Source: Thermoleophilia bacterium SCSIO 60948
Lineage (GTDB): Bacteria > Actinomycetota > Thermoleophilia > Solirubrobacterales > 70-9
Direction of reading: 5' to 3'
NCBI GenBank assembly: GCA_021496505.1
Contig: CP053031.1
Span: forward strand, 2,968,001-3,032,000
DNA: 64,000 bases
The notes below the pieces were generated by a model that was not told where the DNA came from, searched no databases, and worked only from the letters and a program-made list of their open reading frames with translations. Positions 9,915 to 26,567 of this stretch are shown one piece after another (within the stretch, counting starts at the first letter, position 1; each line of letters starts with the position of its first letter). The position numbers were made by a program, and so were the translations under genes.

Positions 9915-11348
9915 TCAGCGGCCGACGTGGATGCCGATTCGCTCCGGCACGCCGGCGACCAGCGCGGTCAGAGGATCGGGCTGCAGGCCACCCTCCTGGG
10001 CGGTCTCCGAGCGCAGCAGCGCCGCGCGGATGATCGAGCCGCCGATGAACCGAAACGGCTCCGGCGGGACGGCTGGGGGCTTCGGGTCGATCAGCGCGAG
10101 GCGGCTGAAGGCATCGCGGCGATCGAGCGCGAGCGAGGCGAGGACCCGGCCGATGAGACGCGAGGGGCCGACGCCGTTCCCCGTATAGCCGAACCCGGCC
10201 GCGACCCGCTCGTCGACCGGCAGGACGACGGGGATGTGGCTCGGCGAGACGTCGATCGGTCCTCCCCAGCCGTGATCGATCCGCCGACCCTCGAGCATCG
10301 GGAAGAAGCGGACGAGGTGCTCGGCGACCTCCTCGACGAGCGGCGGGTCGAGCTCGGTCGAGCCGTTCGTGCGAGCTCCGGGGACGACCTTGCCGCCTCC
10401 CCAGCCGAAGGCGATCCGATCGTCCTCGGTCGTACGGAAATAGTGGACCATCGCGCGCGAATCGGTGATGCACTCGCCGCCACGCCACCCGAGCTCGTCG
10501 AGGACGTCGGGCACCGGTTCGGTGATCACCATGTGCGACGAGGTCAGCGTCAGCCGGCGGCTCGTCGGCCCGAACGCGGCGAGCCTGCCCCCGGCGCCGA
10601 GCGAGGCGCGGCCGGCGGCGACCGATCCGAGCGGCGTGATGACCTTGACCCCGTCCGAGCCCGAGCGGACCTCGAGCACGGGCGTGCGCTCGAAGATCCG
10701 GACGCCGCGGTCGATCAGCCGGCGCCGCAGCCCGAGCGCGAGCCGCGCCGGGTGGACCGTCGCCGCGCCGGGATAGAGCGCGCCGCCGCGGAACACGGGC
10801 GAGGCGCAACGCTCGGCGACCTCGGCCGGCGTCAGCTCGCGGGCGGCCTGCGGCTCGCCGAGCTCGGCGAGGGCCTCGAGCGGACGCTCCCAGGCGCCGT
10901 CGTGGACGGGCGTCGTCGCGACCTGCATGTACCCGGACTGGCGGAAGTGGGCGTCGACGCCCTCGGCCTCGCAGAACTCGCCGATCGCGTCGACCGCGGC
11001 CTGGGACTCGCGCGCCACCTCGATCGCGCGCGCGTCGCCGAAGCGGTCGCGCATACCGGGCAGGCTGAACCAGAGACAGTTGGCGAAACCTCCGTTGCGG
11101 CCGCTCGGTCCGGCGCCGCAGTGCTCGTCGGCCTCGAGCAGCACGACGCTGGCCTCGGGTTCGGCGGCGAGAACCTCCCACGCCGTCCACAGCCCGGTGA
11201 ACCCACCGCCGACCACGACGACGTCCGCGCGCACGTCGCCCTCGAGCGGCGGCTCGGGTTCTACGGGCCCGGCGTCGTCGAGCCACCATCCCCTCGCGTC
11301 GTGGCGTCCGACCACACCCGAAGTGTTGCGAACCACGCGGCCCGGCAC
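9915..11348 (-). CDS. FAD-dependent amine/amino-acid oxidase (DAO family, PuuB-like)
   Basis: 477 residues. After a 38-residue lead comes DVVVVGGGFTGLWTAWEVL with VVLLEADEHCGAGPSGRNGGF, the FAD-binding motif and flavin-contact loop of the D-amino-acid-oxidase fold. Later landmarks are TVHPARLALGLRRRLIDRGV, TEDDRIAFGWGGGK, HGWGGPIDVSPSHIPV and GFGYTGNGVGPSRLIG, which closes the FAD site. The closest families are gamma-glutamylputrescine oxidase (PuuB) and related glycine/sarcosine oxidases, enzymes that oxidise a C-N bond and release H2O2. GTG start at 11348. A polyamine connection is attractive because of the importer at 1-2281 but is inference. The gap to ppk1 upstream is only 52 nt. Confidence 0.85.
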   Translation of the reverse strand: MPGRVVRNTSGVVGRHDARGWWLDDAGPVEPEPPLEGDVRADVVVVGGGFTGLWTAWEVLAAEPEASVVLLEADEHCGAGPSGRNGGFANCLWFSLPGMRDRFGDARAIEVARESQAAVDAIGEFCEAEGVDAHFRQSGYMQVATTPVHDGAWERPLEALAELGEPQAARELTPAEVAERCASPVFRGGALYPGAATVHPARLALGLRRRLIDRGVRIFERTPVLEVRSGSDGVKVITPLGSVAAGRASLGAGGRLAAFGPTSRRLTLTSSHMVITEPVPDVLDELGWRGGECITDSRAMVHYFRTTEDDRIAFGWGGGKVVPGARTNGSTELDPPLVEEVAEHLVRFFPMLEGRRIDHGWGGPIDVSPSHIPVVLPVDERVAAGFGYTGNGVGPSRLIGRVLASLALDRRDAFSRLALIDPKPPAVPPEPFRFIGGSIIRAALLRSETAQEGGLQPDPLTALVAGVPERIGIHVGR

Positions 11349-11400: not shown

Positions 11401-13626
11401 CTAGATCGTCGCGTGCTCAGCCGAGCGCATGGAGTGGCGCTCCATCAGCTCGCGCTGCACGGAGCGCGGGCGGTCGCCGTCGGGCACGCTTCGCGTCCAT
11501 TTGCCCGTGGAGTCGAGCACCCACGAGTTCGCGTCGTCGGCGAGGCTGCGGTCGAGGACGTCGCTCAGCTGCTCGCGCACGCTCGCATCGAGCACGGGCA
11601 CGACGAGCTCGACGCGGTTGTAGAGGTTGCGCGGCATCAGGTCGGCCGAGCCGATGTAGATCGCCGGCTCCTCGCCGGGCCGCTCGAAGGAGAAGATCCG
11701 CGAGTGCTCGAGGAAGCGCCCGACGATCGACTTGACGTTGATGTTCTCCGAGACCCCCTTGACCCCCGGGCGCAGCGCGCAGATCCCGCGGACGTTGAGA
11801 TCGATCTCGACCCCGGCCCGTGAGGCGCGGTAGAGGGCGCGGATCGACGCCGGGTCGAGCAGCGAGTTCATCTTCAGGCGAATTCGCGCCGGCGCATCCG
11901 GGCGGTGGGCGGCGGCCGTTCGCTCGATCTCGGCCTCGATCCCCGGCTGGAGCCCGAACGGCGCCACGAGCGCCTTGCGGTAGCGGGTCGTTCGCGCGTA
12001 GCCGGTCAGGTAGTTGAACATCTCGCCGATGTCGAGCCCGATCGCGCGGTCGGCCGTGAACAGCCCGATGTCCGTGTAGATCCGCGCCGTCTTGGCGTTG
12101 TAGTTGCCGGTCCCGATGTGGACGTAGTGGCGGACGCCCTTGCCCTCGCGGCGGACGACGAGCACGCACTTGCAGTGGGTCTTCAGGGCCGGGATGCCGT
12201 AGACGACGTGCACCCCCGACTCCTCGAGCTCCTTCGCCCAGCGGATGTTCGCCGACTCGTCGAAGCGCGCCTTGAGCTCGACCATGCAGACGACCTGCTT
12301 GCCACGCTCGGCGGCCTCGATCAGCATCGGGATCTGCGGTGAGTCGGCGCTCGTGCGGTACACGGTCTGCTTGATCGCGAGCACCTGCGGGTCGTGGACC
12401 GCCTGCTCGACGAAGCGCTCGACGGTCGTGGCGAACGAGTCGTAGGGGTGGTGGACGACGATGTCGCGCTCGCGCATCGCGGCGAAGAAGTCGGCCGGCT
12501 TGCCCTCGTCGATCAGCGCCGGCGGGGTCACGCCCGAGTACGGCGGATCGCGGAGCTCGCGGAAGCCGCGAACGCCGTGCACCTCCCAGAGACCGGTCAT
12601 GTCGAGCATGCCCTCGACGAAGAACAGCTCGTCCTCGTCGATGCCGAGCGCGTCGATCAGCCGGTCGCGCAGCACGGGCGCCATCCCGGCCGACACCTCG
12701 AGCCGCATCACCTCGCCGAAGCGACGGCGGCGGAGCTCCTCCTCGACCGCCTGGAGCAGGTCGTCGGCCTCGTCGGAGACGTCGTAGTCGGTGTCGCGGG
12801 TTACTCGGAAGAGCGCATGGTCGACGACCTCCATGCCCGGGAACAGCGAGGCGAGGTTCGCGGCGATCAGCTGTTCGACCGGAAGCAACGTCCGTCCGCC
12901 CTCGCCGACCTCGACGAAGCGCCCGAAGATCTCGAGCGGCACTTTGACGCGCGCGAGCACCTCGCCCTCGGACTTCGGGTCGCGGAGCATGACGAGCAGG
13001 CTCAGCGAGAGGTTCGAGATGTACGGGAACGGCCGGCCCAGGCCGAGGACGAGCGGCGTGAGGGCCGGGTAGATCTGGCGCTCGAACAGCGCGTTCAGCT
13101 TGCGCCGCTCCTCGCTCGGCACGTCCTCGATGTCGACGATCCGCAGGCCGTGCCCGGCCAGCGCGGGGCGAATCTGGCGCTCGAAGGCACGGCAGACCCG
13201 TGAGCGCTGCTCGGCGACGCGGTCGGCGATCAGCTCGATCTGCTCGCCGGGCCCGAGCGCGTCGGCGCCACGCCCTCCGCGCCCGGTTTCGCGAGCGGCG
13301 TTGAGGGTCGCGACGCGGACCATGAAGAACTCGTCGAGGTTCGACTCCCAGATCGCGCAGAACTTGAGCCGCTCGAGCAGCGGCTGGTCCGGGTCCTCGG
13401 CGAGCTCGAGGACGCGGGCGTTGAACTCGAGCCACGAGAGCTCGCGGTTGAAGAACAGAGCCGGGTCGTCGAAGTCCTGAGCCGGCGGCGGCGCAGGGAC
13501 CTCATCGAGCCCCGGCACGCGTTCGGGCACCCCGGAGAGCGCCTCTAGATTCGGGTCCGAGTCGCGGTCGCCCGCGGCGGCCTGCGCTTCGGGACCGCTG
13601 AGCTCGGCCGGTTCTGGGGACGTCAT
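11401..13626 (-). CDS. ppk1: Polyphosphate kinase 1
   Basis: 741 residues, the usual length. Reversibly transfers the gamma-phosphate of ATP to polyphosphate. N-terminal domain: FNRELSWLEFNARVLELA and KFCAIWESNLDEFFMVRV. Catalytic core: KQTVYRTSADSPQIPML, MVELKARFDESANIRWA, ALKTHCKCVLVVRR and YVHIGTGNYNAKTARIYTD, the last containing the His that is phosphorylated in PPK1. The C-terminal half has the second phospholipase-D-like domain (RGICALRPGVKGVSENI, then YIGSADLMPRNLYNRVE). It starts 48 nt after the PHP-GT4 fusion on the same strand, so it is probably the second gene of the phosphate-controlled unit starting near 16.1 kb. The Ppx gene for the reverse direction lies at 19.9 kb. Confidence 0.97.
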   Translation of the reverse strand: MTSPEPAELSGPEAQAAAGDRDSDPNLEALSGVPERVPGLDEVPAPPPAQDFDDPALFFNRELSWLEFNARVLELAEDPDQPLLERLKFCAIWESNLDEFFMVRVATLNAARETGRGGRGADALGPGEQIELIADRVAEQRSRVCRAFERQIRPALAGHGLRIVDIEDVPSEERRKLNALFERQIYPALTPLVLGLGRPFPYISNLSLSLLVMLRDPKSEGEVLARVKVPLEIFGRFVEVGEGGRTLLPVEQLIAANLASLFPGMEVVDHALFRVTRDTDYDVSDEADDLLQAVEEELRRRRFGEVMRLEVSAGMAPVLRDRLIDALGIDEDELFFVEGMLDMTGLWEVHGVRGFRELRDPPYSGVTPPALIDEGKPADFFAAMRERDIVVHHPYDSFATTVERFVEQAVHDPQVLAIKQTVYRTSADSPQIPMLIEAAERGKQVVCMVELKARFDESANIRWAKELEESGVHVVYGIPALKTHCKCVLVVRREGKGVRHYVHIGTGNYNAKTARIYTDIGLFTADRAIGLDIGEMFNYLTGYARTTRYRKALVAPFGLQPGIEAEIERTAAAHRPDAPARIRLKMNSLLDPASIRALYRASRAGVEIDLNVRGICALRPGVKGVSENINVKSIVGRFLEHSRIFSFERPGEEPAIYIGSADLMPRNLYNRVELVVPVLDASVREQLSDVLDRSLADDANSWVLDSTGKWTRSVPDGDRPRSVQRELMERHSMRSAEHATI

Positions 13627-13674: not shown

Positions 13675-16008
13675 TCAGGCCGCACGGTGCGCTGCGCCGC
13701 TCGCGCCGATACGGCGGCGCGCCCGGGCGACACCGAGCTCGTAGCCGCGCCCCAGCTGCTCGAGCGAGCGCGACCAGCCGCGGGCTCGCGTCGCGGCGCG
13801 GCCTCCGTCGCCGAGCGCTCCGCGCAGGTACGGCGACGCGCCGAGCTGCGCGATCGCCGAAGCGATCTCGCACGCGTCGGCGCGGCAGAGATAGCCATCG
13901 GCGCCGTGGCGGATCAGCTCGGCCGGCCCGCCCTCGGCGACGGCGACGACCGGGAGCCCGCTCGCCTGCGCCTCCGTGATCACCTGGCCATAGGTGTCGG
14001 TCTGCGAGGCGAAGCAGAAGAGATCGGCGCTCGCGTAGACCCGCGCCAGCTCGTCGCGCTCGACCCAGCCCAGGAACGTCGCCGAGTCGCCCAGCCGCTC
14101 GCGCAGCGCCTGCTCCTCCGGACCGCCGCCGGCGAGCACGAGGTGCAGCCGGGGGTCGCGCTCGCGGGCCAGCTCGAAGCTCTCGGCGAGCAGGTCGACG
14201 CCCTTCTCGCGCGAGAGCCGGCCGACGTAGAGGACCGACACCTCGCCGGGAACCAGATCGGGGTCGCGCTTGGCCGGGTCGTAGAGCTCGAGGTCGACTC
14301 CGCGGCCCCAGCGCGCGATTCCGACCGGGTCGATTCCGAGCTCCTCGACCGAGCGGTCGGCGGGCTCGGACGGTGAGAGCACGACGTCGGCCTGCTCGAG
14401 GAACGAGCGCAGCGCGAACGCCGCCGTCGCGGCGACGCCGGGATCGCCGGAACGCGTACGCGCGTAGCCGACGAGGTCGGTGTGATGGCTGATCGCGAGC
14501 GGCTTCGCCGCGATCTTCGCCGCGACCGCCGCCATCACCCCGGCCGGCCCGGGCGCCGTCAGGTGGATCAGGTCGTAGTTGCCGCCGGCGAGAGTCTCGA
14601 CGAGCTCGGGGGCGCTCGGCACGCCGAGGTGGAGGCCCGGGTAGAACGGCGTCTCCAGCTCGGCCACCGCCGGCAGTCGCCGATCGACGCGCGCGTCCGT
14701 GCCGACGACCTCGACGTCCCAGCCCGGCACGCCGCGCTCGCGCACCCACTCGACCGTGTGCGTGACGCCGTGCATCGACCCGGCGCCGTCTACGACCAGC
14801 GCGACTCGGGGGCGGTCGCCCGGGTCACGGCGACGCAACCTCGCGCGCTCGCCGCCCAACACCGTCGCCGAGGCGACGTACGGAATCGCCGGGATGAACG
14901 CCGACGTCAGCTCTTCGGCCGCGGCTGGAAGCCGGGCCGGGTCCTCGACGGCGGCGGTGACGGTCCTCGCAGCCGCGGCGAGGCGCGCCTCGTGGATCCG
15001 CCGGGCGCGGCGCTCGAGCTCGGAATGGCGGAAGCCCTCGGCCTTGAGCGTGTCGAGCAGGCCCGCGGGGTCGGATGCGAAGCCGACCGAGTCGAGCCAG
15101 GCACTGAGCAGCCCCGAGGCCTCGCCGGCCGATATCTCAGAATCGCCCGAGCCACCGCGCTCGCCCCCGTCGGCGACGACGCGCCGGGCGAGCTCGAGGA
15201 TCGCGCCGGCGGTCACCGCGCGCTTGGAGACCTGGCTCTCGTCGGTCGCCTCCGCCCCGTCGCCGACGCTCGTCGCGGGTTCGGCCGACAGCGATCGGAC
15301 CGCGAGCGCGAGCGCGGCGTGCGCCCACTTAGCGGCGCTGCCCTGCTCACCGCCGGCCTGCGCGTGGCCGCCGCGGATGTGCGCGAGGAAGTCCTCCGGC
15401 GTCTCCGCGAACGGTGTCTGGGTGTAGGTGCGGCCGATGTCGACACCGGCGTGATCGTCCGAGCCGCCCGATTCTGAGCCGCCGCGGGTCTCGAGGTAGA
15501 TCGCCGCCGGGGCGTTCAGCTCCGGCGCGCGCGAGCCGTTGCGCGTCTCCCAGACGCCGAACAGTTCGGCGAGCCGACGGCGGTGGCGCTGCTCGAGGGG
15601 CGCGGCGACCGAGAAGAACGGGTGGGCGAGCGAACACGCGATCTCGTGCTCGGCGAGGTAGGCGGCGCAGGTCTCGAGATCGCGGGCGTTGGACTGCAGG
15701 AACTCGTGATCGGCGGCGTCGATCCCCCAGCAGAGGACGTGAACGGCGTGGCGTTCGCCGCGAAACCAGGTCGTCAGCTCTTCGGAGACGAAGACATCGG
15801 GCAGGTGGGCGATCTCGAGTGCGCCATCGATCGTGTCGTGGTCGGTGATCGTCACGAAGTCCATGCCGCGCGACTTGGCGAGCTCGTAGACCTCCTGCGG
15901 CGGCGTCGCGCACTCGGGCAGTCCGATCGAGCGCGAGATGCCGAGCTTCGCGACCTGCGAGGCGGTCGAGTGGCAGTGCAGGTCGGCCCGCACAGGCTTG
16001 GGAGTCAT
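13675..16008 (-). CDS. Fusion of PHP phosphoesterase domain and GT4 glycosyltransferase
   Basis: 777 residues from ATG 16008, preceded by AGGGAAG. A longer open frame extends upstream but lacks coding character. Residues 1-190 are a PHP domain with every metal-binding position visible: H11 and H13 (DLHCHST), D56-H57 (ITDHDTI), E76, H90, H129 (LAHPFF), E154 and D184/H186 (GSDDHAG). Residues ~190-370 are a helical, Ala/Glu-rich linker. Residues ~375-770 are a GT-B glycosyltransferase of family 4: HGVTHTVEWVRERG, ISHHTDLVGYA, LSPSEPADRSVEELGI, WGRGVDLELYDPAKRD, VLYVGRLSREKGVDLL and ITEAQASGLPVVAVAEGG. The WGRGVD and HTDLVGYA stretches recall SqdX/MgtA/PimB lipid glycosyltransferases. A PHO box lies ~85 nt upstream and ppk1 follows. 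Substrate unproven. Confidence 0.9.
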   Translation of the reverse strand: MTPKPVRADLHCHSTASQVAKLGISRSIGLPECATPPQEVYELAKSRGMDFVTITDHDTIDGALEIAHLPDVFVSEELTTWFRGERHAVHVLCWGIDAADHEFLQSNARDLETCAAYLAEHEIACSLAHPFFSVAAPLEQRHRRRLAELFGVWETRNGSRAPELNAPAAIYLETRGGSESGGSDDHAGVDIGRTYTQTPFAETPEDFLAHIRGGHAQAGGEQGSAAKWAHAALALAVRSLSAEPATSVGDGAEATDESQVSKRAVTAGAILELARRVVADGGERGGSGDSEISAGEASGLLSAWLDSVGFASDPAGLLDTLKAEGFRHSELERRARRIHEARLAAAARTVTAAVEDPARLPAAAEELTSAFIPAIPYVASATVLGGERARLRRRDPGDRPRVALVVDGAGSMHGVTHTVEWVRERGVPGWDVEVVGTDARVDRRLPAVAELETPFYPGLHLGVPSAPELVETLAGGNYDLIHLTAPGPAGVMAAVAAKIAAKPLAISHHTDLVGYARTRSGDPGVAATAAFALRSFLEQADVVLSPSEPADRSVEELGIDPVGIARWGRGVDLELYDPAKRDPDLVPGEVSVLYVGRLSREKGVDLLAESFELARERDPRLHLVLAGGGPEEQALRERLGDSATFLGWVERDELARVYASADLFCFASQTDTYGQVITEAQASGLPVVAVAEGGPAELIRHGADGYLCRADACEIASAIAQLGASPYLRGALGDGGRAATRARGWSRSLEQLGRGYELGVARARRRIGASGAAHRAA

Positions 16009-16084
16009 CGTTGCTTCCCTCTTGTGAGAATTCAGCTTGATTGCAGGGGCGATGCAACCGCGCCGAGCGCCCTCAGCCGTTACC

Positions 16085-16117
16085 GGGCTGACACCAGGCG
16101 GTGAAGTGGCTGTGAAC
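16085..16117 (-). promoter_or_regulatory. PHO box and promoter of the PHP-GT4 / ppk1 unit
   Basis: Reading the minus strand, 16117-16107 is GTTCACAGCCA, 16106-16096 is CTTCACCGCCT and 16095-16085 is GGTGTCAGCCC: two good and one weak 11-nt direct repeats, the architecture of actinobacterial PhoP/PhoB boxes. The second unit can serve as the -35 (CTTCAC), followed after 18 nt by TAACGG as -10. The pstS promoter has the same layout (TTTCAC, 18 nt, TAACAG). Confidence 0.75.
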
Positions 16118-19890: not shown

Positions 19891-20805
19891 CTAGGCCGCG
19901 CGAAGCCTCGGGCGGTTGCTCTCGCCGTTGCCGGCGAGCAGGTCGAGGACGACGCCCTCGCGCAGACCGCCTTTGCCGATCTGGAGCGGGCAGCCGAGCA
20001 GCTCGGATATCTTCTCGAGGATCAGGATCCCGGCGGGGAGCATCTCGACGCGGCGCGGGTCGAGCTCGAAGCGGCGCGCGATCTCGGCGGCCGGAGCGCC
20101 GCAGAGCAGCCTGACCCCGCGCTCGAGCGTCTCGTACTCGAGCACCGAGCCGACGAGCGTGCGCAGCGAGTTGGCGCTGCCACCGACCGCGACCGCCTGC
20201 GCCGGGGGTTCGGTCTCGGCGCCGTCGAAGAGCTCGTCGATCCGGTCTCGCATCCGCCGGACCTCGGCCGCCGACGGCGGGTCGGACGCGACGAGCTCGC
20301 TCGCCAGCACCCCCGACCCGATCCGAAACGAGCGCACCTCGTCGCAGCCGCCGGCCTGGGTCCCGAGACAGATCTCCGACGAGCCGCCACCGACGTCGAC
20401 GACCGCCACGCGGCCGTCGACCGTGTGGCCGAGCGTCTTCGTGGCGCCGAGGAACGCGAGCCTGCCCTCCTCGGCCTCACCGAGCACATCGACCGGCCGA
20501 CCGGTCGCGCGGCGGATCCGCTTGACGGCGGCGCGGCCGTTCTTGGCCTCACGGATCGCAGCGGTCGCGACGATCCTGATTGCGCCGGCCCCGACCTCCT
20601 CGGCCAGCCGGGCCTGTGTCGCGACGACCTCGGCGACCTCGGCGAGCTTTTCGTCGGGGATCCGCCCGTTCTCGATCGCCCGCCCGATCCGGGTGTAGGC
20701 GCGCTGCTCCATCAGCTTGCGGAGCTGTCCCTCCTGCGGCTCGGCGACCAGTACGCGGGTCGTGTTCGAGCCGATGTCGATGGCGGCGCAGAGCGTCGGG
20801 CTCAC
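19891..20805 (-). CDS. ppx: Exopolyphosphatase of the Ppx/GppA family
   Basis: 304 residues from GTG 20805, preceded by GGAGG ten bases upstream; a longer frame reaches 20973 but is not needed. The acetate-kinase/actin-like fold is shown by TLCAAIDIGSNTTRVLVAE (phosphate 1), VAVVDVGGGSSEICLG (phosphate 2) and AVAVGGSANSLRTLV. It matches the short, roughly 300-residue Ppx/GppA proteins of actinobacteria, which release phosphate from polyphosphate ends; pppGpp hydrolysis is the alternative. Last gene of the minus-strand run pstS-pstC-pstA-pstB-phoU-ppx, 49 nt after phoU, so polyphosphate breakdown is tied to phosphate supply. Confidence 0.9.
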   Translation of the reverse strand: MSPTLCAAIDIGSNTTRVLVAEPQEGQLRKLMEQRAYTRIGRAIENGRIPDEKLAEVAEVVATQARLAEEVGAGAIRIVATAAIREAKNGRAAVKRIRRATGRPVDVLGEAEEGRLAFLGATKTLGHTVDGRVAVVDVGGGSSEICLGTQAGGCDEVRSFRIGSGVLASELVASDPPSAAEVRRMRDRIDELFDGAETEPPAQAVAVGGSANSLRTLVGSVLEYETLERGVRLLCGAPAAEIARRFELDPRRVEMLPAGILILEKISELLGCPLQIGKGGLREGVVLDLLAGNGESNRPRLRAA

Positions 20806-20854
20806 GACCGCCGATCCTCCCATGGGCCTCGGATGCGGCCCACCCGCCCCGTGC

Positions 20855-21586
20855 TCAGAGGCGCGAGATCCGCGCCGCGGGGTCGGATGCGTCCTGGAAC
20901 TCGCGGAACAGCCCGGTGACCACGAAGGCGACCTGCTCGCCGATGTCGACGGCGTTGTCGCCGACGCGCTCAAGTGCGCGCGCGACGAGGATCATCGTTG
21001 TCGCCCACTCGCGGATGTCCGGGTCGTCGCCGACCTCGATCGCGAGCCGGAACGTCTGGCGGTTGAGGGTGTCGACGACGTCGTCGGAGACGACGAGCGA
21101 CTGCGCGAGGTCGATGTCGCGGTCCGCGAACGCTCGCTTGGCCTGGCGGATCAGGATCTTGACCTGCTGCCCCATCTTCACCAGGTTGGCGACGATGCGC
21201 TCGTCAGAGGGCGAGTCGTGCCCGGAGAGCGGCAGGATCTTGGCGATGTTCACGCACTGATCGCCCATCCGCTCGACGTTCTTCATCAGGTGGAGCAGCG
21301 CCGCGATCACTCGGAGGTCCCCCGCAACGGGAGCCTGCGTCGCGAGCATCGTCAGCAGGCGCTGATGGACCTCGAGGTAGCGACCGTCGATGATGTCGTC
21401 GTCGGCGACCACCATCTCCGCGAGCTCGATGTCGCGATGCTCGATCGCCTCCGTCGTGCGCTCGATGGCGGTGACGACGAAATCGAGCGCCTCGAGCGCG
21501 CTGGCTTCGAGCGCCGCGAGCTGGCGCTCGTACTCCTGGCGAACGTGATCCGCTCCGGCTCGAGTCTCCCGCGCGCGGGCGCTCAT
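20855..21586 (-). CDS. phoU: Phosphate signalling regulator PhoU
   Basis: 243 residues of two similar three-helix bundles. The metal-binding pattern is present in both halves: VVADDDIIDGRYLEVHQ with LHLMKNVERMGDQCVNIAK in the first and VVSDDVVDTLNRQTF with ALERVGDNAVDIGEQ in the second (the E/D-R-x-G-D motif). In known systems it links the Pst importer to the phosphate sensor kinase and restrains both uptake and signalling. It begins ten bases after pstB with an AGAGGTG ribosome site five bases before ATG 21586. Confidence 0.96.
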   Translation of the reverse strand: MSARARETRAGADHVRQEYERQLAALEASALEALDFVVTAIERTTEAIEHRDIELAEMVVADDDIIDGRYLEVHQRLLTMLATQAPVAGDLRVIAALLHLMKNVERMGDQCVNIAKILPLSGHDSPSDERIVANLVKMGQQVKILIRQAKRAFADRDIDLAQSLVVSDDVVDTLNRQTFRLAIEVGDDPDIREWATTMILVARALERVGDNAVDIGEQVAFVVTGLFREFQDASDPAARISRL

Positions 21587-21596
21587 CGAGGCACCT

Positions 21597-22502
21597 CTAT
21601 CCGACCTTGCCCGATACGTAGTCCTCGGTGCGCCTGTCGGCCGGATTCGTGAAGATCTTCTCCGTGTCGTCGTACTCGACGATCTCGCCCCAGCGGCCCT
21701 TCTCGTCCGCGGTGAGCTCGACGATGAGGAACGCCGTCGCGTCCGACACGCGCGCCGCCTGCTGCATGTTGTGGGTGACGATCACGATCGAGTAGTCCTT
21801 CTTGAGCTCGAGCATGAGCTCCTCGATCTTGCCGGTCGAGATCGGATCGAGCGCCGAGCATGGCTCGTCCATGAGGATCACGTCGGGATTCGTCGCGATG
21901 CCCCGGGCGATGCACAGACGCTGCTGCTGGCCGCCGGACATCCCGAAGGCGTTGGTCTGAAGGCGGTCCTTGACCTCGTCCCACAACGCCGCCCTGCGAA
22001 GAGCGTTCTCGACGATCTCATCCATGTCGCCCTTCATCCCGAGGATGCGGGGACCGAAGGCGATGTTGTCGTAGATGGACTTCGGGAACGGGTTCGGCTT
22101 CTGGAAGACCATGCCGATCATCTTGCGGACCTGGACCGGGTCGATCTTGGGGCCGTAGAGGTCATGACCGTGGTAGAGCAGCTGCCCGTCGACCCGAGCG
22201 GTCGGGATCAGGTCGTTCATGCGATTGAGGCACCGGATGAGCGTCGACTTGCCGCAACCGGAGGGGCCGATGAGCGCCGTGATGTTCTTGTGGAAGATGT
22301 CCATCGAGATGTTCTTCACGGCGGGGCTGTCGCCGTAGTGGACCGACAGGTCCTTGATCTCGAAGACCTTCTCCCCCCGGCGAAAAGACCCCGTGCTCTG
22401 CCGGGTCTCCACCGAAATCTCGGGTCGTGACGTCTGCCCACCGACGCGGGAGGCGTGGTCAGCTCGCGAGGCGGCGTGCTCTTCGGTCATGCGCTGGCTC
22501 AC
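21597..22502 (-). CDS. pstB: Phosphate ABC transporter ATP-binding protein
   Basis: 301 residues; the canonical PstB domain starts near residue 43 ([20 protein letters not shown]). Walker A is GPSGCGKST, the Q-loop FQKPNPFP, the signature [14 protein letters not shown] and Walker [14 protein letters not shown], followed by the switch histidine in [15 protein letters not shown]. The N-terminal 42 residues are hydrophilic and unlike the rest; they may be a lineage-specific extension or the true start may be later. GTG 22502 has AGGAG seven bases upstream, which supports the long form. Powers phosphate import through PstC and PstA. Confidence 0.96.
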
Positions 22503-22512
22503 CTTAGTTCTC

Positions 22513-23451
22513 CTACCATTTCTGCTCGTAGCGATTGCGAAGCCAGATCGCGAACGAGTTCATCGCCAGGAGCACGGCGAGCATCAGGATGATGCCGGCC
22601 GCGGCGAGGGTCTGGAAGTCCTCCTGGGGCCGGGTCGCGTACTGGAAGATCTGGACCGGAAGCGCGGAGTAGTTGCCGCTGAAGGGTTCGGGATTGAAGG
22701 TCACGAAGACGGTCGCGCCGACCAGCAACAGCGGCGCGGCCTCGCCGAGCGCCCGTGAGATGGCGAGGATTACGCCGGTCGCGATGCCCGGGATCGCCGC
22801 CGGCAGGACCTGGCGCCGAGTCGTCTGCCACCGGGTGGCGCCCAGCGCCATGGAGCCCTCACGGATCGACGGCGGTACGGCGCGGATCGCCTCACGCGAG
22901 GCGATGATCACGATCGGCAGAACGAGCAGGGCCAGAGTGATCGACCCGGCGAGCAGGATGAATCCGATGCCCAGAGGCCCTCGAACGATGAACCCGAGGC
23001 CGAGGATCCCGTAGATGATCGATGGAACGGCCGCGAGATTCTGGATGTTCACCTCGATCAGGCGGTTCCACCAGCGTGTGCCGTCGGCGTACTCCTCGAG
23101 GTAGACGGCGGCCCCTACTCCGAGCGGGACGATGAGTACGAAGACGAAAGCGATCATCATGACGCTGCCGATCAACGCGGGCCGGAACCCCGCGTTGGCG
23201 GTGTCGATCGTCGAGGGAGGCTCGGTCAGGAGCGATGGGCTCAACGCCGGCGCGCCTTCCACCAGTGCCTGAGCGAGCAGCGCGACCAGACCGGCGAGCG
23301 CTACGAGGATCGCGGCGAGGAGAAGCCCGGCGAACACGTTCGTGCGGATCACGTCGCCGCGAGGCTGGCGACCGAGCGCAGCCTCGACGTTGGCGCGGGC
23401 GCCGGCGACGGCGAGCCGAGCGCGCTCCGATGAGGGTGTTGCGGATTCCAT
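22513..23451 (-). CDS. pstA: Phosphate ABC transporter permease PstA
   Basis: 312 residues from ATG 23451, which overlaps the pstC stop (TGATG). An N-terminal hydrophilic stretch of about 45 residues precedes the first span ([20 protein letters not shown]). Six spans are seen; the EAA coupling loop is [26 protein letters not shown]. An unusual feature is the long periplasmic-side loop [20 protein letters not shown]. Ends 11 nt before pstB with a good ribosome site in between. Confidence 0.95.
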
Positions 23452-24407
23452 CACTCGTAGACCTGTCGGTAGCGGCGCACGAGCCTGATCGAGATCATGT
23501 TCATGGCCAGTGTCATCAGGAACAGGACCGTGCCGGCGGCGAAGATCGAGTCGTAGGTGACCGACCCCTGGGCGATGTCGCCGGTCGCGGTCGTCGCGAT
23601 GAACGAGGTGAGCGCCTGCACCGATTCGACCGGATTGAGGCTGAAGTTGGGGGTCGAGCCGGCGGCCAGCACGACGATCATCGTTTCGCCGACGGCACGC
23701 GAGATCGCGAGCACGATCGAGGCGACGATGCCTGAGAGCGCGGCGGGGAACACGACCCGGGTGGCGACCCGGGCCCGGGTTGCGCCCATCGCGTAGGCGC
23801 CTTCACGAAGCCCCTGCGGCACGGCGGACATCGCGTCCTCGGAGATCGAGGCGATGATCGGCACGATCAAAAGGCCTATGCCGAGTCCCGCGGCGAGGGC
23901 CATGAAAGGACTGTCGGCGCCGCCGAGGAACTCGCCGGGCCAGACGTCCTGGATGATCGGGATCAGGAACGTAGCCGCGAAGAATCCGAGCGCCACCGTC
24001 GGTATCCCCGCGAGGACCTCGAGAATCGGCTTGACAACGCGGCGGACACGGCGACTGGCGTACTCGCTGAGGTAGATCGCCGCCGCCAGGCCGATCGGGA
24101 TCGCGAACAGGCAGCCCCAGAGCGTGACGCTGACGGTGCCGGCGACGATGTCGAGAACTCCGAAGCTGGGCGGCTCGAAGGTCGGGGTCCAGTCGGTGCT
24201 GAAAAACTCCCCGAGTGAGACGTCACCGAAGAAGCCGATCGTCGGCCCGATCAGGCTGATGACGATGGCCGTTGTGGTGATGACCGAGATCACCGCGCAC
24301 GCAGCGAGAAGGCCACCGATGACCTTCTCGCTGGTGCGGGCGCTCGGAGCCTCGAGCCGGCGACCGAGGTCACCGGGGCCCGAGCCGCCGATTCCGCTTG
24401 CTTCCAT
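23451..24407 (-). CDS. pstC: Phosphate ABC transporter permease PstC
   Basis: 318 residues, about six spans after a roughly 30-residue polar N-terminus. The coupling loop REGAYAMGATRARVATRVVFPAALSG and the following AISRAVGETMIVVLAAG are characteristic of PstC. The loop LGEFFSTDWTPTFEPPSFGVLD faces the outside, where PstS docks. Starts 30 nt after pstS and overlaps pstA. Confidence 0.95.
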   Translation of the reverse strand: MEASGIGGSGPGDLGRRLEAPSARTSEKVIGGLLAACAVISVITTTAIVISLIGPTIGFFGDVSLGEFFSTDWTPTFEPPSFGVLDIVAGTVSVTLWGCLFAIPIGLAAAIYLSEYASRRVRRVVKPILEVLAGIPTVALGFFAATFLIPIIQDVWPGEFLGGADSPFMALAAGLGIGLLIVPIIASISEDAMSAVPQGLREGAYAMGATRARVATRVVFPAALSGIVASIVLAISRAVGETMIVVLAAGSTPNFSLNPVESVQALTSFIATTATGDIAQGSVTYDSIFAAGTVLFLMTLAMNMISIRLVRRYRQVYE

Positions 24408-24437: not shown

Positions 24438-25409
24438 CTACGAACCCGAGCCGCCGGACGCCAGCGCTTCGACCTCGTCGGTCGACTCGGTGGTCTGCTC
24501 CTCGGTCATCGGGATGAACCCGGCGGCCTCGGTGATCTGCTCCTGGTTCTCGACGTAGAACTTGACGAACTCCTGGACGACCTCGTCCTTCAGTGCCTCC
24601 GAGGACGGGTAGATGTAGAGACCACGTCCGAGCGGCGTGTAGCTGCCATCCTGGACGGTCTCCGCTGACGGTGCGACGCAGCCGTCGCCGCCGTCGATCT
24701 CGAGCGCCTTCAGCGAGTCGGCGTTCTCCTCGAAGAACGAGAATCCGAAGTAGCCCATGCCGCCCGGAGAGCCCGAAACGCCCGTCACCGTGGCGTTGTC
24801 GTCCTCGCCGACGTTGTTGTAGTCCTTGCGCTGGACTCCCTCTTCACCGTTGATCGCCTCGGTGAAGTAGTCGAACGTGCCCGAGTCGGTACCCGGTCCG
24901 AAGAGCTGGAGCTCCTCGTCGTATTCGGCATCGAGGTCGTCGATGTCGGACCAGCTGGAGACCGTCGAGTCAGGACCCCAGATCTGCTCGAGCTGCTCGG
25001 TCGTCATGCAGGTGACCGGGTTCTCGGTGTTGACGACGACGGTCAGCGCGTCGTTGGCGACCTGAACCTCTTCGTACTCCACACCGCCGTCGGCGCAGAG
25101 CTTCTCTTCCTCGGCCTCGATCTGCCGCGATGCATCGGAGATGTCGGTCTCGCCGGCGCAGAACTTCTCGAACCCGCCGCCCGTACCGGACGTGCCGACG
25201 GAAACCTGAACGTCGGGATTCTCCTCCTGGAAGAGCTCGGCAGCCGCCTCGGTGAGCGGGGCCACGGTGCTGGAGCCGTCGACCTGGATGTTGCCCGAGA
25301 GGCCGCTCGCGGAATCGCCGCCGGACTCCGAGTCGTCGCCGCACGCGACTGCGCCGAGCGACAGCAGCCCGCAGGCGCCGGCGGTCAACAGCATCTTCCT
25401 CGTTCTCAC
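24438..25409 (-). CDS. pstS: Phosphate-binding lipoprotein PstS
   Basis: 323 residues from GTG 25409, with AAGGAG about seven bases upstream. The first 20 residues are a lipoprotein signal with lipobox LSLGAVAC; the Cys is followed by an acidic/serine-rich tether. The binding fold shows IQVDGSSTVAPLTEAAA, GTSGTGGGFEKFCAGETDISDASR and GPGTDSGTFDYFTEAI, the three loops that hold phosphate. The mature protein is highly acidic. The promoter region 115 nt upstream carries a PHO box. A longer frame upstream to 25850 is an antisense artefact. Confidence 0.97.
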   Translation of the reverse strand: MRTRKMLLTAGACGLLSLGAVACGDDSESGGDSASGLSGNIQVDGSSTVAPLTEAAAELFQEENPDVQVSVGTSGTGGGFEKFCAGETDISDASRQIEAEEEKLCADGGVEYEEVQVANDALTVVVNTENPVTCMTTEQLEQIWGPDSTVSSWSDIDDLDAEYDEELQLFGPGTDSGTFDYFTEAINGEEGVQRKDYNNVGEDDNATVTGVSGSPGGMGYFGFSFFEENADSLKALEIDGGDGCVAPSAETVQDGSYTPLGRGLYIYPSSEALKDEVVQEFVKFYVENQEQITEAAGFIPMTEEQTTESTDEVEALASGGSGS

Positions 25410-25629
25410 AGAATCTCCTTGGGTGCGGGCGACGAGCAGCGTCGCCCGAGTGAATGGACGCTTCGTAGTTGCGCGCCGTAGCGTCGCGGCGACCGAATCC
25501 GATCCTGTTACGGGAGCGTCGCAGGAACGTGAAAAAGCTGTGAACGTCGCTCGGGCACGGCGTTTTCTGCGCCGATATAGCGAACTTTGCGAACGCCAGC
25601 CAAAGCGCCGAGGCGCTTGCGAATGGGCG
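25410..25629 (-). promoter_or_regulatory. pstS promoter region
   Basis: This 220-nt gap separates pstS from the PhoB-like regulator. It contains the PHO box described separately and, on the minus strand, TTTCAC (25534-25529) followed after 18 nt by TAACAG as a likely -35/-10 pair. The remaining stretch (25546-25629) holds AT-richer sequence (TATATC and AAAGTTCG) but no clear gene or hairpin. Confidence 0.55.
25524..25545 (-). promoter_or_regulatory. PHO box of pstS
   Basis: On the minus strand 25545-25535 reads GTTCACAGCTT and 25534-25524 reads TTTCACGTTCC: two 11-nt direct repeats starting with (G/T)TTCAC, the PhoP-binding layout known from Streptomyces. They lie 115 nt upstream of the pstS start codon in the same orientation as the gene. 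Confidence 0.8.
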
Positions 25630-26448
25630 CTAGAGCCGCGAGATCTCGAACGCGAACTCGTCGTGCTCGAGATCGTCGTCGTGCTCGGAGGCCTCGGATT
25701 CGCCGGCCCGGCGCTCGAGCTCGGCCGCGGCGGCCTCCTCGGTGCGAGGCTCGGCCTCGAAGCGGTAGCCGACGCCGAAGTGCGTGTGGATGTAGTTCCA
25801 CTCGGGCGAGGCCTGTTCGAGCTTCGCGCGCAGCTTGCGGACGAAGACATCGACCGAGCGGTCCCCGTGGGCCATCGTGTAGCCCCAGACCGACTGGTAG
25901 ACGTCCTCGCGCTCGATCACGCGGCCGCTCGCCTCGACGAGCGTCTGGAGCAGCTCGAACTCGCGTCGCGTCAGACCGATTCCCTCGCCGGCCACGAAGG
26001 CCTGGAACTGGTCGGCGCGGACCTCGAGCTCGCCTGCGCGCACGGGCGCCGAATCGGTGGCCGGACGGCTGCGACGGCGGCGGCGGTTGACCGCCTCGAC
26101 GCGGGCCGCGACCTCCTCGGGGTGGCACGGCTTCGAGATCCAGTCGTCGACGAACTCGCGCAGCGCACGGACCCGCTGGGCGAGGGTGCCCTGCGAGCAG
26201 ACGACGATCCCGATGTCGGGAGCCGCCTTGCCGAGCCGCTCGACGAACTCCCAGCCCTGCGGACCGAGCAGGGTCAGATCGATGACGACGGCATCCATCC
26301 GCATCGTCAGGAGCTCCTCGGCCAGCGGCGGCGTCGAGAAGACCCGGTACTCGGCTCCGCCGGCCTGGAGGCGCCGGGTCAGCACTCGGAGGAATCCGCT
26401 GTCGGAATCGATGATCGCGACGCGGGGCTTGCGATTCTGGGAAGTCAT
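25630..26448 (-). CDS. OmpR/PhoB-family response regulator
   Basis: 272 residues from ATG 26448. Receiver domain: acidic pair D14/D16 (IIDSDSGF), phosphoacceptor D57 (VVIDLTLLGPQGW), switch Ser (VVCSQG) and Lys (DWISKP). A basic linker (NRRRRRSR) leads to a winged-helix domain with LTRREFELLQTLVEASGRVIERE, DRSVDVFVRKLRAKLE and THFGVGYRFE. The C-terminus is an extra 40-residue acidic tail (ERRAGESEASEHDDDLEHDEF), unusual for the family. Position upstream of pstS suggests it is the PhoB/PhoP/RegX3 equivalent, but no histidine kinase is adjacent. PHO-like repeats lie 76 nt upstream, in reverse orientation to this gene. Confidence 0.88.
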   Translation of the reverse strand: MTSQNRKPRVAIIDSDSGFLRVLTRRLQAGGAEYRVFSTPPLAEELLTMRMDAVVIDLTLLGPQGWEFVERLGKAAPDIGIVVCSQGTLAQRVRALREFVDDWISKPCHPEEVAARVEAVNRRRRRSRPATDSAPVRAGELEVRADQFQAFVAGEGIGLTRREFELLQTLVEASGRVIEREDVYQSVWGYTMAHGDRSVDVFVRKLRAKLEQASPEWNYIHTHFGVGYRFEAEPRTEEAAAAELERRAGESEASEHDDDLEHDEFAFEISRL

Positions 26449-26523
26449 ATGTGTATGTGAGCGGTGGGCCCTGCCGGCCACCGCATCGGAGTGTAGGTGA
26501 CGCCCGGACACGCGCATCTTCGG

Positions 26524-26567
26524 GTTCACGGGAATTTCACACCGGCATTATCGGGATATTCACCCCG
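26524..26567 (+). promoter_or_regulatory. Four-unit PHO-like repeat between the PhoB-like gene and a small membrane-protein gene
   Basis: 26524-26534 GTTCACGGGAA, 26535-26545 TTTCACACCGG, 26546-26556 CATTATCGGGA and 26557-26567 TATTCACCCCG form 11-nt units; units 1 and 2 match the pstS box and unit 4 is shifted by one base. Orientation is towards the plus-strand gene at 26788, but the divergent regulator gene starts 76 nt away on the other side, so either or both could be controlled. The rest of the 26449-26787 gap holds no gene. Confidence 0.6.

What the first reader, a model, noticed from the sequence alone, without database searches (positions are those of the whole stretch)
13675..16117. 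PHO-box-controlled fusion of a PHP phosphoesterase and a lipid-type GT4 glycosyltransferase: a possible one-protein phospholipid-to-glycolipid switch
Seen: all PHP metal ligands (H11, H13, D56-H57, E76, H90, H129, E154, D184/H186) and a complete GT4 domain in one 777-residue chain, with two 11-nt GTTCAC-type repeats upstream. Known: GT4 enzymes such as SqdX, MgtA and PimB glycosylate lipids, and phosphate-starved bacteria of other phyla replace phospholipids using a phospholipase (PlcP) plus a glycosyltransferase (Agt). Inferred: the PHP half removes a phosphate-containing headgroup and the GT half glycosylates the resulting diacylglycerol, or the PHP half trims a phosphorylated glycolipid precursor.
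Basis: partly seen in the sequence, partly recalled or inferred. Interest (0 to 1): 0.82.

Follow-up and report, generated by a model that had tools for sequence, protein, structure and literature searches.

The report
Phosphate-regulated phosphoesterase–glycolipid glycosyltransferase fusion
Soil bacteria of one actinobacterial order carry a single gene, switched by a phosphate-starvation DNA signal, that joins a phosphate-removing enzyme to a sugar-transferring enzyme of the kind that makes sugar lipids, which suggests (but does not yet prove) a one-protein way to swap phosphate lipids for sugar lipids.

Summary
Window 13675-16008 (-) encodes a 777-aa PHP + GT4 fusion, with a PHO-box pair (16117-16101) about 90 nt upstream and ppk 48 nt downstream. 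Full-length homologues (51-60% identity) occur in 61 of 216 near-complete genomes of the class. Distant ones (about 31-36%) occur in other orders and in a 'Nitrospirae' MAG. The Pho link is strong and holds at many loci: 21/27 homologues with Pho genes nearby have the box, and so do 19/23 with none within about 10 kb (shuffles predict about 2% of regions). In close relatives the order is pstSCAB-phoU-ppx-fusion-ppk. In a tree (support 96) the GT half groups with proven phosphate-starvation DAG glycosyltransferases (Agt1, Agt2) and an MgtA orthologue, apart from PimA, MshA and BshA. The PHP half keeps all metal ligands invariant and folds like PHP phosphoesterases, but its substrate is unknown. 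The lipid-switch idea is thus well supported for regulation and the GT half, only plausible for the PHP half. I judge it a new variant of the PlcP-Agt kind, with a non-homologous, fused phosphoesterase. A second, reversed GT4-PHP fusion beside inositol-lipid genes is a candidate for the missing PIP phosphatase.

The parts
13675..16008 (-). PHP-GT4 fusion gene, 777 aa
   Evidence: ORF, RBS, Pfam/NCBIfam, 58-sequence alignment
15349..16008 (-). PHP phosphoesterase domain (residues ~1-220), all metal ligands invariant
14833..15336 (-). helical region (residues ~225-392) with conserved hydrophobic helices; possible lipid/membrane-binding part (inference)
   Evidence: AlphaFold2 model and hydropathy
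13729..14814 (-). GT4 glycosyltransferase domain (residues ~399-760) of the Agt/MgtA diacylglycerol-glycosyltransferase clade
16101..16117 (-). PHO box, GTTCACAGCCACTTCAC, about 90 nt upstream of the ATG
16014..16021 (-). ribosome-binding site GAGGGAAG
   Evidence: read from sequence
11401..13626 (-). ppk (polyphosphate kinase), 48 nt downstream, probably co-transcribed
   Evidence: directly downstream within ~50-270 nt in 9 related loci
19891..20820 (-). ppx (exopolyphosphatase/GppA); ORF as listed starts at 20973
20855..21586 (-). phoU
21597..24407 (-). pstB, pstA, pstC phosphate ABC transporter
24438..25850 (-). pstS (listed ORF over-long at 5' end)
   Evidence: TIGR02136 above cut-off
25529..25545 (-). 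PHO box upstream of the likely true pstS start
25630..26529 (-). OmpR/PhoP-type response regulator
   Evidence: L115:1602-2501
26524..26540 (+). PHO-type box at the 5' end of the response-regulator gene

Best explanation
It is a Pho-regulon enzyme of glycolipid synthesis. Under phosphate starvation a PhoP-type regulator binds the upstream PHO box and turns the gene on together with ppk (regulation inferred from sequence). The GT4 half is a retaining, nucleotide-sugar-dependent glycosyltransferase whose acceptor is diacylglycerol or a glycosyl-diacylglycerol (inferred from its clade). The PHP half is a metal-dependent phosphoesterase that works in the same lipid pathway, most likely making the diacylglycerol acceptor by taking the phosphate-containing headgroup off a membrane lipid (phosphatidic acid, PG or similar). 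The hydrophobic helical region would hold both sites at the membrane. Net effect: phosphate is recovered and a phosphorus-free glycolipid replaces the phospholipid. Shown: architecture, intact sites, Pho linkage, GT clade. Inferred: activities and the order of steps. My sub-estimates: Pho-regulated 0.9; lipid GT 0.8; PHP half makes DAG 0.45.
For: PHO boxes: 59/84 upstream regions >=10/12 (1.4 expected), 26 at 11/12 (0.12 expected), median position -94. They persist in 19/23 homologues with no pho gene in reach. Other gene families in the same loci score 7/324, while pstS scores 9/20. Pho genes lie within reach in 28/80 loci, in several arrangements, including a distant 'Nitrospirae' homologue with pstB and phoU in its apparent operon. 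GT half: 32% identity over 369 aa to Agt2/PA0842, clade with Agt1, Agt2 and MgtA at UFBoot 96. Agt1/Agt2 make glycosyl-DAG under Pho control (PMC8528852). Close GT relatives are repeatedly paired with DAG-making phosphoesterases: Agt1 with PlcP, Agt2 with plcHR, the A. baumannii GT with a PAP2 phosphatase; here the phosphoesterase is fused. GpgS/GpgD-like lipid-sugar genes follow it in related loci. PHP ligands are invariant and the PHP fold is clear (Z 15-20).
Against: PHP relatives with known activity hydrolyse soluble, protein or nucleic-acid phosphoesters; I know of none acting on phospholipids. Six related loci have a separate PF04185 phosphoesterase. The class-level homologue in L107 lacks Pho neighbours, and its upstream region lacks a PHO box. 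Glycosidase genes (GH31 divergent in 37 loci, glucosylglycerate-hydrolase-like in 13) could point to a soluble glycoside. No expression or lipid data exist. Homologues are related, so box counts are not independent events.
Confidence: 0.55

Rival explanations
1. Phosphatase acts after or beside the GT: the PHP half dephosphorylates a phosphorylated lipid precursor or product (for example a glycosylated phosphatidylglycerol phosphate or a PIP-like lipid), as a tailoring step, rather than making diacylglycerol.
For: PHP enzymes are typically phosphomonoesterases. The second, reversed GT4-PHP fusion in this genome, beside ino1 and a CDP-alcohol phosphatidyltransferase, fits a PIP phosphatase plus PimA-like GT. 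GpgS/GpgD-like neighbours make modified PG in Pseudomonas (PMC12713373).
Against: Closest GTs (Agt1, Agt2) need only plain DAG, and phosphate-starvation control favours a phosphorus-free product.
Confidence: 0.25
2. Soluble product: the GT half glycosylates a phosphorylated small molecule (glycerate, glycerol or inositol phosphate) and the PHP half removes the phosphate, giving a compatible solute, like sucrose-phosphate synthase plus phosphatase.
For: Best single PDB sequence match is sucrose-phosphate synthase; a glucosylglycerate-hydrolase-like gene (13 loci) and GH31 (37 loci) are frequent neighbours.
Against: The tree places the GT with DAG/lipid GTs (UFBoot 96); match bits to Agt2/MgtA (134/119) far exceed those to SPS/MshA/BshA (<=63) (different programs, so only a rough comparison); conserved hydrophobic helix.
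Confidence: 0.1
3. The GT makes a glycolipid, but the PHP half has no role in lipid supply: it is regulatory, structural, or acts on nucleotides; DAG comes from a separate phospholipase (for example PF04185).
For: PF04185 phosphoesterase near the gene in 6 loci; no PHP known to me to act on lipids.
Against: All metal ligands invariant down to 32% identity, fusion kept across orders and in another phylum, which implies coupled catalysis.
Confidence: 0.1

Closest known systems
PlcP-Agt phosphate-starvation lipid remodelling (Agt1/PlcP and Agt2 of Pseudomonas aeruginosa; Agt of SAR11, Agrobacterium)
   Same: Pho-box control; GT of the same clade (Agt2 32% identity over 369 aa); GT paired with a phosphoesterase
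   Different: phosphoesterase is a PHP domain, not the unrelated PlcP; both halves in one protein; different bacterial lineage; lipids and activities untested
MgtA (actinobacterial GlcA-diacylglycerol mannosyltransferase)
   Same: GT half in the same clade (31% identity; the Tsukamurella orthologue was named by its menD/menaquinone-methyltransferase synteny)
   Different: MgtA is a lone GT, beside menaquinone genes
GpgS/GpgD glucosaminyl-phosphatidylglycerol pathway (PMC12713373)
   Same: GpgS model is the top NCBIfam match of the GT half; GpgS- and GpgD-like genes lie just downstream in many related loci
   Different: score 105 bits against a cut-off of 480; no such partner genes beside the fusion in this window
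PHP phosphoesterases (Cv1693 2yb1, RNase AM 7ug9, PsfC 7rty, CehA/McbA family)
   Same: fold and metal ligands
   Different: known substrates are soluble or nucleic acid; here fused to a lipid-type GT
Sucrose-phosphate synthase and other GT plus phosphatase fusions
   Same: logic of GT and phosphatase in one chain
   Different: unrelated phosphatase domain; GT in another clade

Membership tests
PHP superfamily phosphoesterase | HxH, DH, E, H, H, E and DxH metal-ligand motifs | tested here: met
   H11 H13 D56 H57 E77 H90 H129 E154 D184 H186 invariant in 58 sequences
PHP superfamily phosphoesterase | PHP fold | tested here: met
   Z 15-20 to PHP structures over 176-210 residues; Foldseek E 5e-8 to RNase AM
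PHP superfamily phosphoesterase | Pfam PF02811 above gathering | tested here: not met
   only PHP_C (PF13263) passes in this protein; PF02811 is a detection threshold, and fold plus ligands carry the assignment
PHP superfamily phosphoesterase | hydrolysis of a phosphoester | not testable with these tools
   needs enzyme assay
GT4 glycosyltransferase | GT-B fold with donor-site K and acidic-X7-E motif | tested here: met
   Pfam above cut-offs; K602, E679 invariant, D671 >90%; Z 30-37 to GT4 structures
Agt/MgtA-type diacylglycerol glycosyltransferase | phylogenetic grouping with proven members | tested here: met
   UFBoot 96 with Agt1, Agt2, MgtA orthologue
Agt/MgtA-type diacylglycerol glycosyltransferase | transfer of sugar to DAG | not testable with these tools
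   needs assay
PlcP-Agt lipid-remodelling system | Pho-box control of the GT | tested here: met
   box present and conserved; binding itself not tested
PlcP-Agt lipid-remodelling system | PlcP homologue present | tested here: inconclusive
   P. aeruginosa PlcP found in 0 of 61 relatives, but no positive control in the set
PlcP-Agt lipid-remodelling system | phospholipid replaced by glycolipid at low phosphate | not testable with these tools
   needs lipidomics
GpgS (NF053787) | curated score cut-off 480 bits | tested here: not met
   105 bits
MshA (TIGR03449), BshA, PimA | curated cut-off or grouping in tree | tested here: not met
   MshA 72 bits against 462; falls outside the MshA, BshA and PimA groups

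The most novel reading that the evidence does not exclude
The PHP half is the first PHP-family lipid phosphoesterase, so the one protein turns a phospholipid into a glycolipid at the membrane. The mirror-image GT4-PHP fusion next to ino1 and a CDP-alcohol phosphatidyltransferase is then the missing PIP phosphatase joined to a PimA-like mannosyltransferase, making PHP + GT4 a general lipid-headgroup exchange module in these bacteria.
Probability: 0.3. Interest if true: 0.82.

Novelty: new variant of a known kind. Interest (0 to 1): 0.62.

Why it matters
Lipid remodelling at low phosphate is known mainly from proteobacteria through PlcP and Agt. In M. tuberculosis phosphorus-free glycolipids appear at low phosphate, and the phospholipases of phospholipid breakdown are still described as 'yet to be identified' (PMC12722247). 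Here one gene with an intact Pho signal joins a candidate phosphoesterase to a DAG-type glycosyltransferase in a large soil lineage. One expression experiment could test it. If right, it gives a new enzyme class for phospholipid headgroup removal and a clue to the unidentified actinobacterial PIP phosphatase.

Tried and rejected
Literature searches for a PHP-glycosyltransferase fusion found none, in an open-access library only. MshA-type and sucrose-phosphate-synthase-type function: rejected as first choice by the tree and scores. GpgS membership: score far under cut-off. Plasmid search for the fusion: only lone GTs. Fold searches with the full model filled up with GT4 hits, so the N-terminal part was folded alone; the helical region 225-392 gave no listed match of its own, which says nothing about its novelty. 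One PDB search used a wrong frame and was repeated. A first genome search for the second fusion failed and was repeated.

Full report
Observation. The gene is on the - strand, 16008 to 13675, ATG start behind a GAGGGAAG ribosome-binding site, 777 aa. Pfam finds a GT4 in residues ~416-736 and PHP_C at 163-214. NCBIfam adds CehA/McbA-type metallohydrolase similarity for the N-terminal part. An AlphaFold2 model from 58 homologues has pLDDT 87 and pTM 0.86. A model of residues 1-396 (pLDDT 88.5) matches PHP phosphoesterases: RNase AM, PsfC, TM0559, Cv1693 and others, Z 15-20. The GT half matches GT4 structures with Z 30-37. All PHP ligands are invariant across 58 sequences, one of them only 32% identical. 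The invariant Glu is E77 rather than E76. Between the domains is a helical region with a conserved hydrophobic helix (362-382, mean hydropathy about +1.0), which I read as a possible membrane or lipid contact (inference).

Distribution. The window's genome is one 3.42-Mb contig, closest to Solirubrobacterales by its relatives. Homologues with 51-60% identity, most of them full length, were fetched in 79 loci, nearly all named as that order or its class. One locus annotated 'Nitrospirae' has 32% identity. In a survey of the class, 61 of 216 genomes at least 90% complete have it, in 22 of 91 genera, including three distant copies (31-36%) outside the order. In the first relatives set it was in 18 of 61, so it is patchy.

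Phosphate link, neighbourhood. In the window the order on the - strand is pstSCAB-phoU-ppx, then a methyltransferase on the other strand, MFS, an M1 peptidase, the fusion, and ppk 48 nt further on. In close relatives the order is pst-phoU-ppx-fusion-ppk, all in one direction, with fewer genes between. ppk lies directly downstream within ~50-270 nt in nine other loci. Patulibacter and others have pst genes and phoU a few kb downstream instead, and L059 has them on the other side. In total 28 of 80 loci have at least one Pho gene in reach (18 of the 42 large ones); of eleven other window genes used as controls only two appear, in 7 and 1 loci. The 'Nitrospirae' locus reads PhoU-kinase fusion, RimK-like, HprK-related kinase, phosphoglucomutase, fusion, second GT4, DUF2334, pstB, phoU.

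Phosphate link, PHO box. PHO boxes are pairs of 11-nt direct repeats; the conserved core in Streptomyces coelicolor is GTTCACC (PMC4415409). The best GTTCAC-N5-GTTCAC match upstream of 84 homologues is >=10/12 in 59 (shuffles: 1.4) and 11/12 in 26 (shuffles: 0.12). Positions centre on -94. Other gene families in the same loci reach >=10/12 in 7 of 324 cases, pstS-type in 9 of 20 and a second pst-linked family in 11 of 32 (42 of 84 for the fusion in that test, which used uncorrected ORF starts). The strongest single test: of 23 homologues in large loci with no Pho gene in reach, 19 have the box and 13 have 11/12. So the box is kept when the neighbourhood is not. The distant homologues L010, L011 and L106 lack this box.

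GT half. Pairwise, it matches Agt2/PA0842 over 369 aa at 32% (134 bits), an A. baumannii GT (123 bits), an MgtA orthologue (119 bits; identified by its synteny with menaquinone genes) and Agt1 (88 bits). The best of the other GT4 proteins in its own genome gives 72 bits; PDB entries for SPS, BshA, MshA and PimB' give 63 or less. In a maximum-likelihood tree the PHP-fused GTs are one clade (98), sister to Agt1/Agt2/MgtA (joint support 96), apart from PimA, MshA and BshA. The PimA, MshA and BshA references are stretches taken from PDB alignments, a limit. Agt1 and Agt2 make monoglucosyl- and glucuronosyl-DAG under Pho control (PMC8528852). The GpgS model is the top NCBIfam hit of the fusion (105 bits), but also of Agt2 (135), MgtA (134) and Agt1 (60), all far under its cut-off. 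It marks the clade, not the function.

Pairing with a phosphoesterase. Agt1 sits directly behind plcP, Agt2 directly behind plcH-plcR, and the A. baumannii relative directly before a PAP2 phosphatase. The fusion looks like a fourth, fused solution with an unrelated phosphoesterase. P. aeruginosa-type PlcP was not found in 61 relatives, without a positive control. These are analogies and do not fix the PHP substrate.

Other neighbours in related loci: a GpgS-like GT4 next downstream (14 loci), a GpgD-like DUF2334 deacetylase (10 loci), a GH31 enzyme divergent from the fusion (37 loci), a glucosylglycerate-hydrolase-like protein (13 loci), a PF04185 phosphoesterase (6 loci), BacA (11 loci). The first two recall the GpgS-GpgD pathway that puts glucosamine on PG (PMC12713373) and suggest that in those species the product lipid is further decorated. 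The glycosidases could recycle sugar headgroups or belong to a soluble glycoside pathway.

A second fusion. The genome also has a GT4-PHP protein with the domains in reverse order at G000:C1:154505-156757, behind a CDP-alcohol phosphatidyltransferase, myo-inositol-1-phosphate synthase, a sigma factor and an anti-sigma factor. Its GT half is closest to PimA among those compared (26% identity). 40 of 41 relatives have a match, in a few only the PHP half, and ino1 is adjacent in 12 of 20 loci despite 1.5-kb flanks. In mycobacteria PI is made through PIP, and the phosphatase was 'yet-unidentified' in 2019 (PMC6506517). A PIP phosphatase + PimA-like fusion is an obvious hypothesis, and it gives the PHP domain a second lipid setting.

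Verdict. Observation confirmed. Pho regulation very likely; lipid GT likely; PHP as a DAG-making headgroup hydrolase plausible, not shown. Novelty: new variant of a known kind (PlcP-Agt logic, non-homologous fused phosphoesterase). Shown by sequence: architecture, conservation, box, neighbourhood, clade. Inferred: expression, substrates, products.

Noticed in passing
G000:C1:154505-156757 (L109:4506-6758 +): Second fusion in the same genome with reversed order, GT4 (PimA-like) then PHP, in a locus with a CDP-alcohol phosphatidyltransferase and ino1; a match in 40 of 41 relatives, ino1 adjacent in 12 of 20. Candidate for the missing PIP phosphatase joined to a PimA-like GT.
   Followed up: partly
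G303, G307, G310, G315 and other genomes of two genera: In some relatives only the PHP half of the reversed fusion is found, at 72-78% identity, with a shorter open frame (434-484 aa); the PHP half is far more conserved than the GT half.
   Followed up: no
related loci, for example L070:7616-10306 (-): A GH31 glycosidase lies divergent from the fusion in 37 of about 80 loci and would share its promoter region; role unknown.
   Followed up: partly
L106:4932-9919: Upstream of the 'Nitrospirae' fusion: a PhoU domain fused to an APH-type kinase, a RimK-like ATP-grasp protein, an HprK-related kinase B and a phosphoglucomutase, an unusual phosphate-linked operon.
   Followed up: no
L045:13526-14512 and L106:13680-14456: DUF2334 (GpgD-like deacetylase) with a GpgS-like GT4 next to the fusion in related loci: a possible phosphate-controlled aminosugar-lipid pathway.
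   Followed up: partly
window 24438-25850 (-): The listed pstS ORF is over-long: its family match starts at residue 161 and a PHO box (25529-25545) lies inside it, so the true start is probably about 25460 or lower.
   Followed up: partly
window 9915-11348 (-): FAD oxidoreductase resembling the putative aminophosphonate oxidoreductase model TIGR03329 (330 bits, under its cut-off), just downstream of ppk.
   Followed up: no
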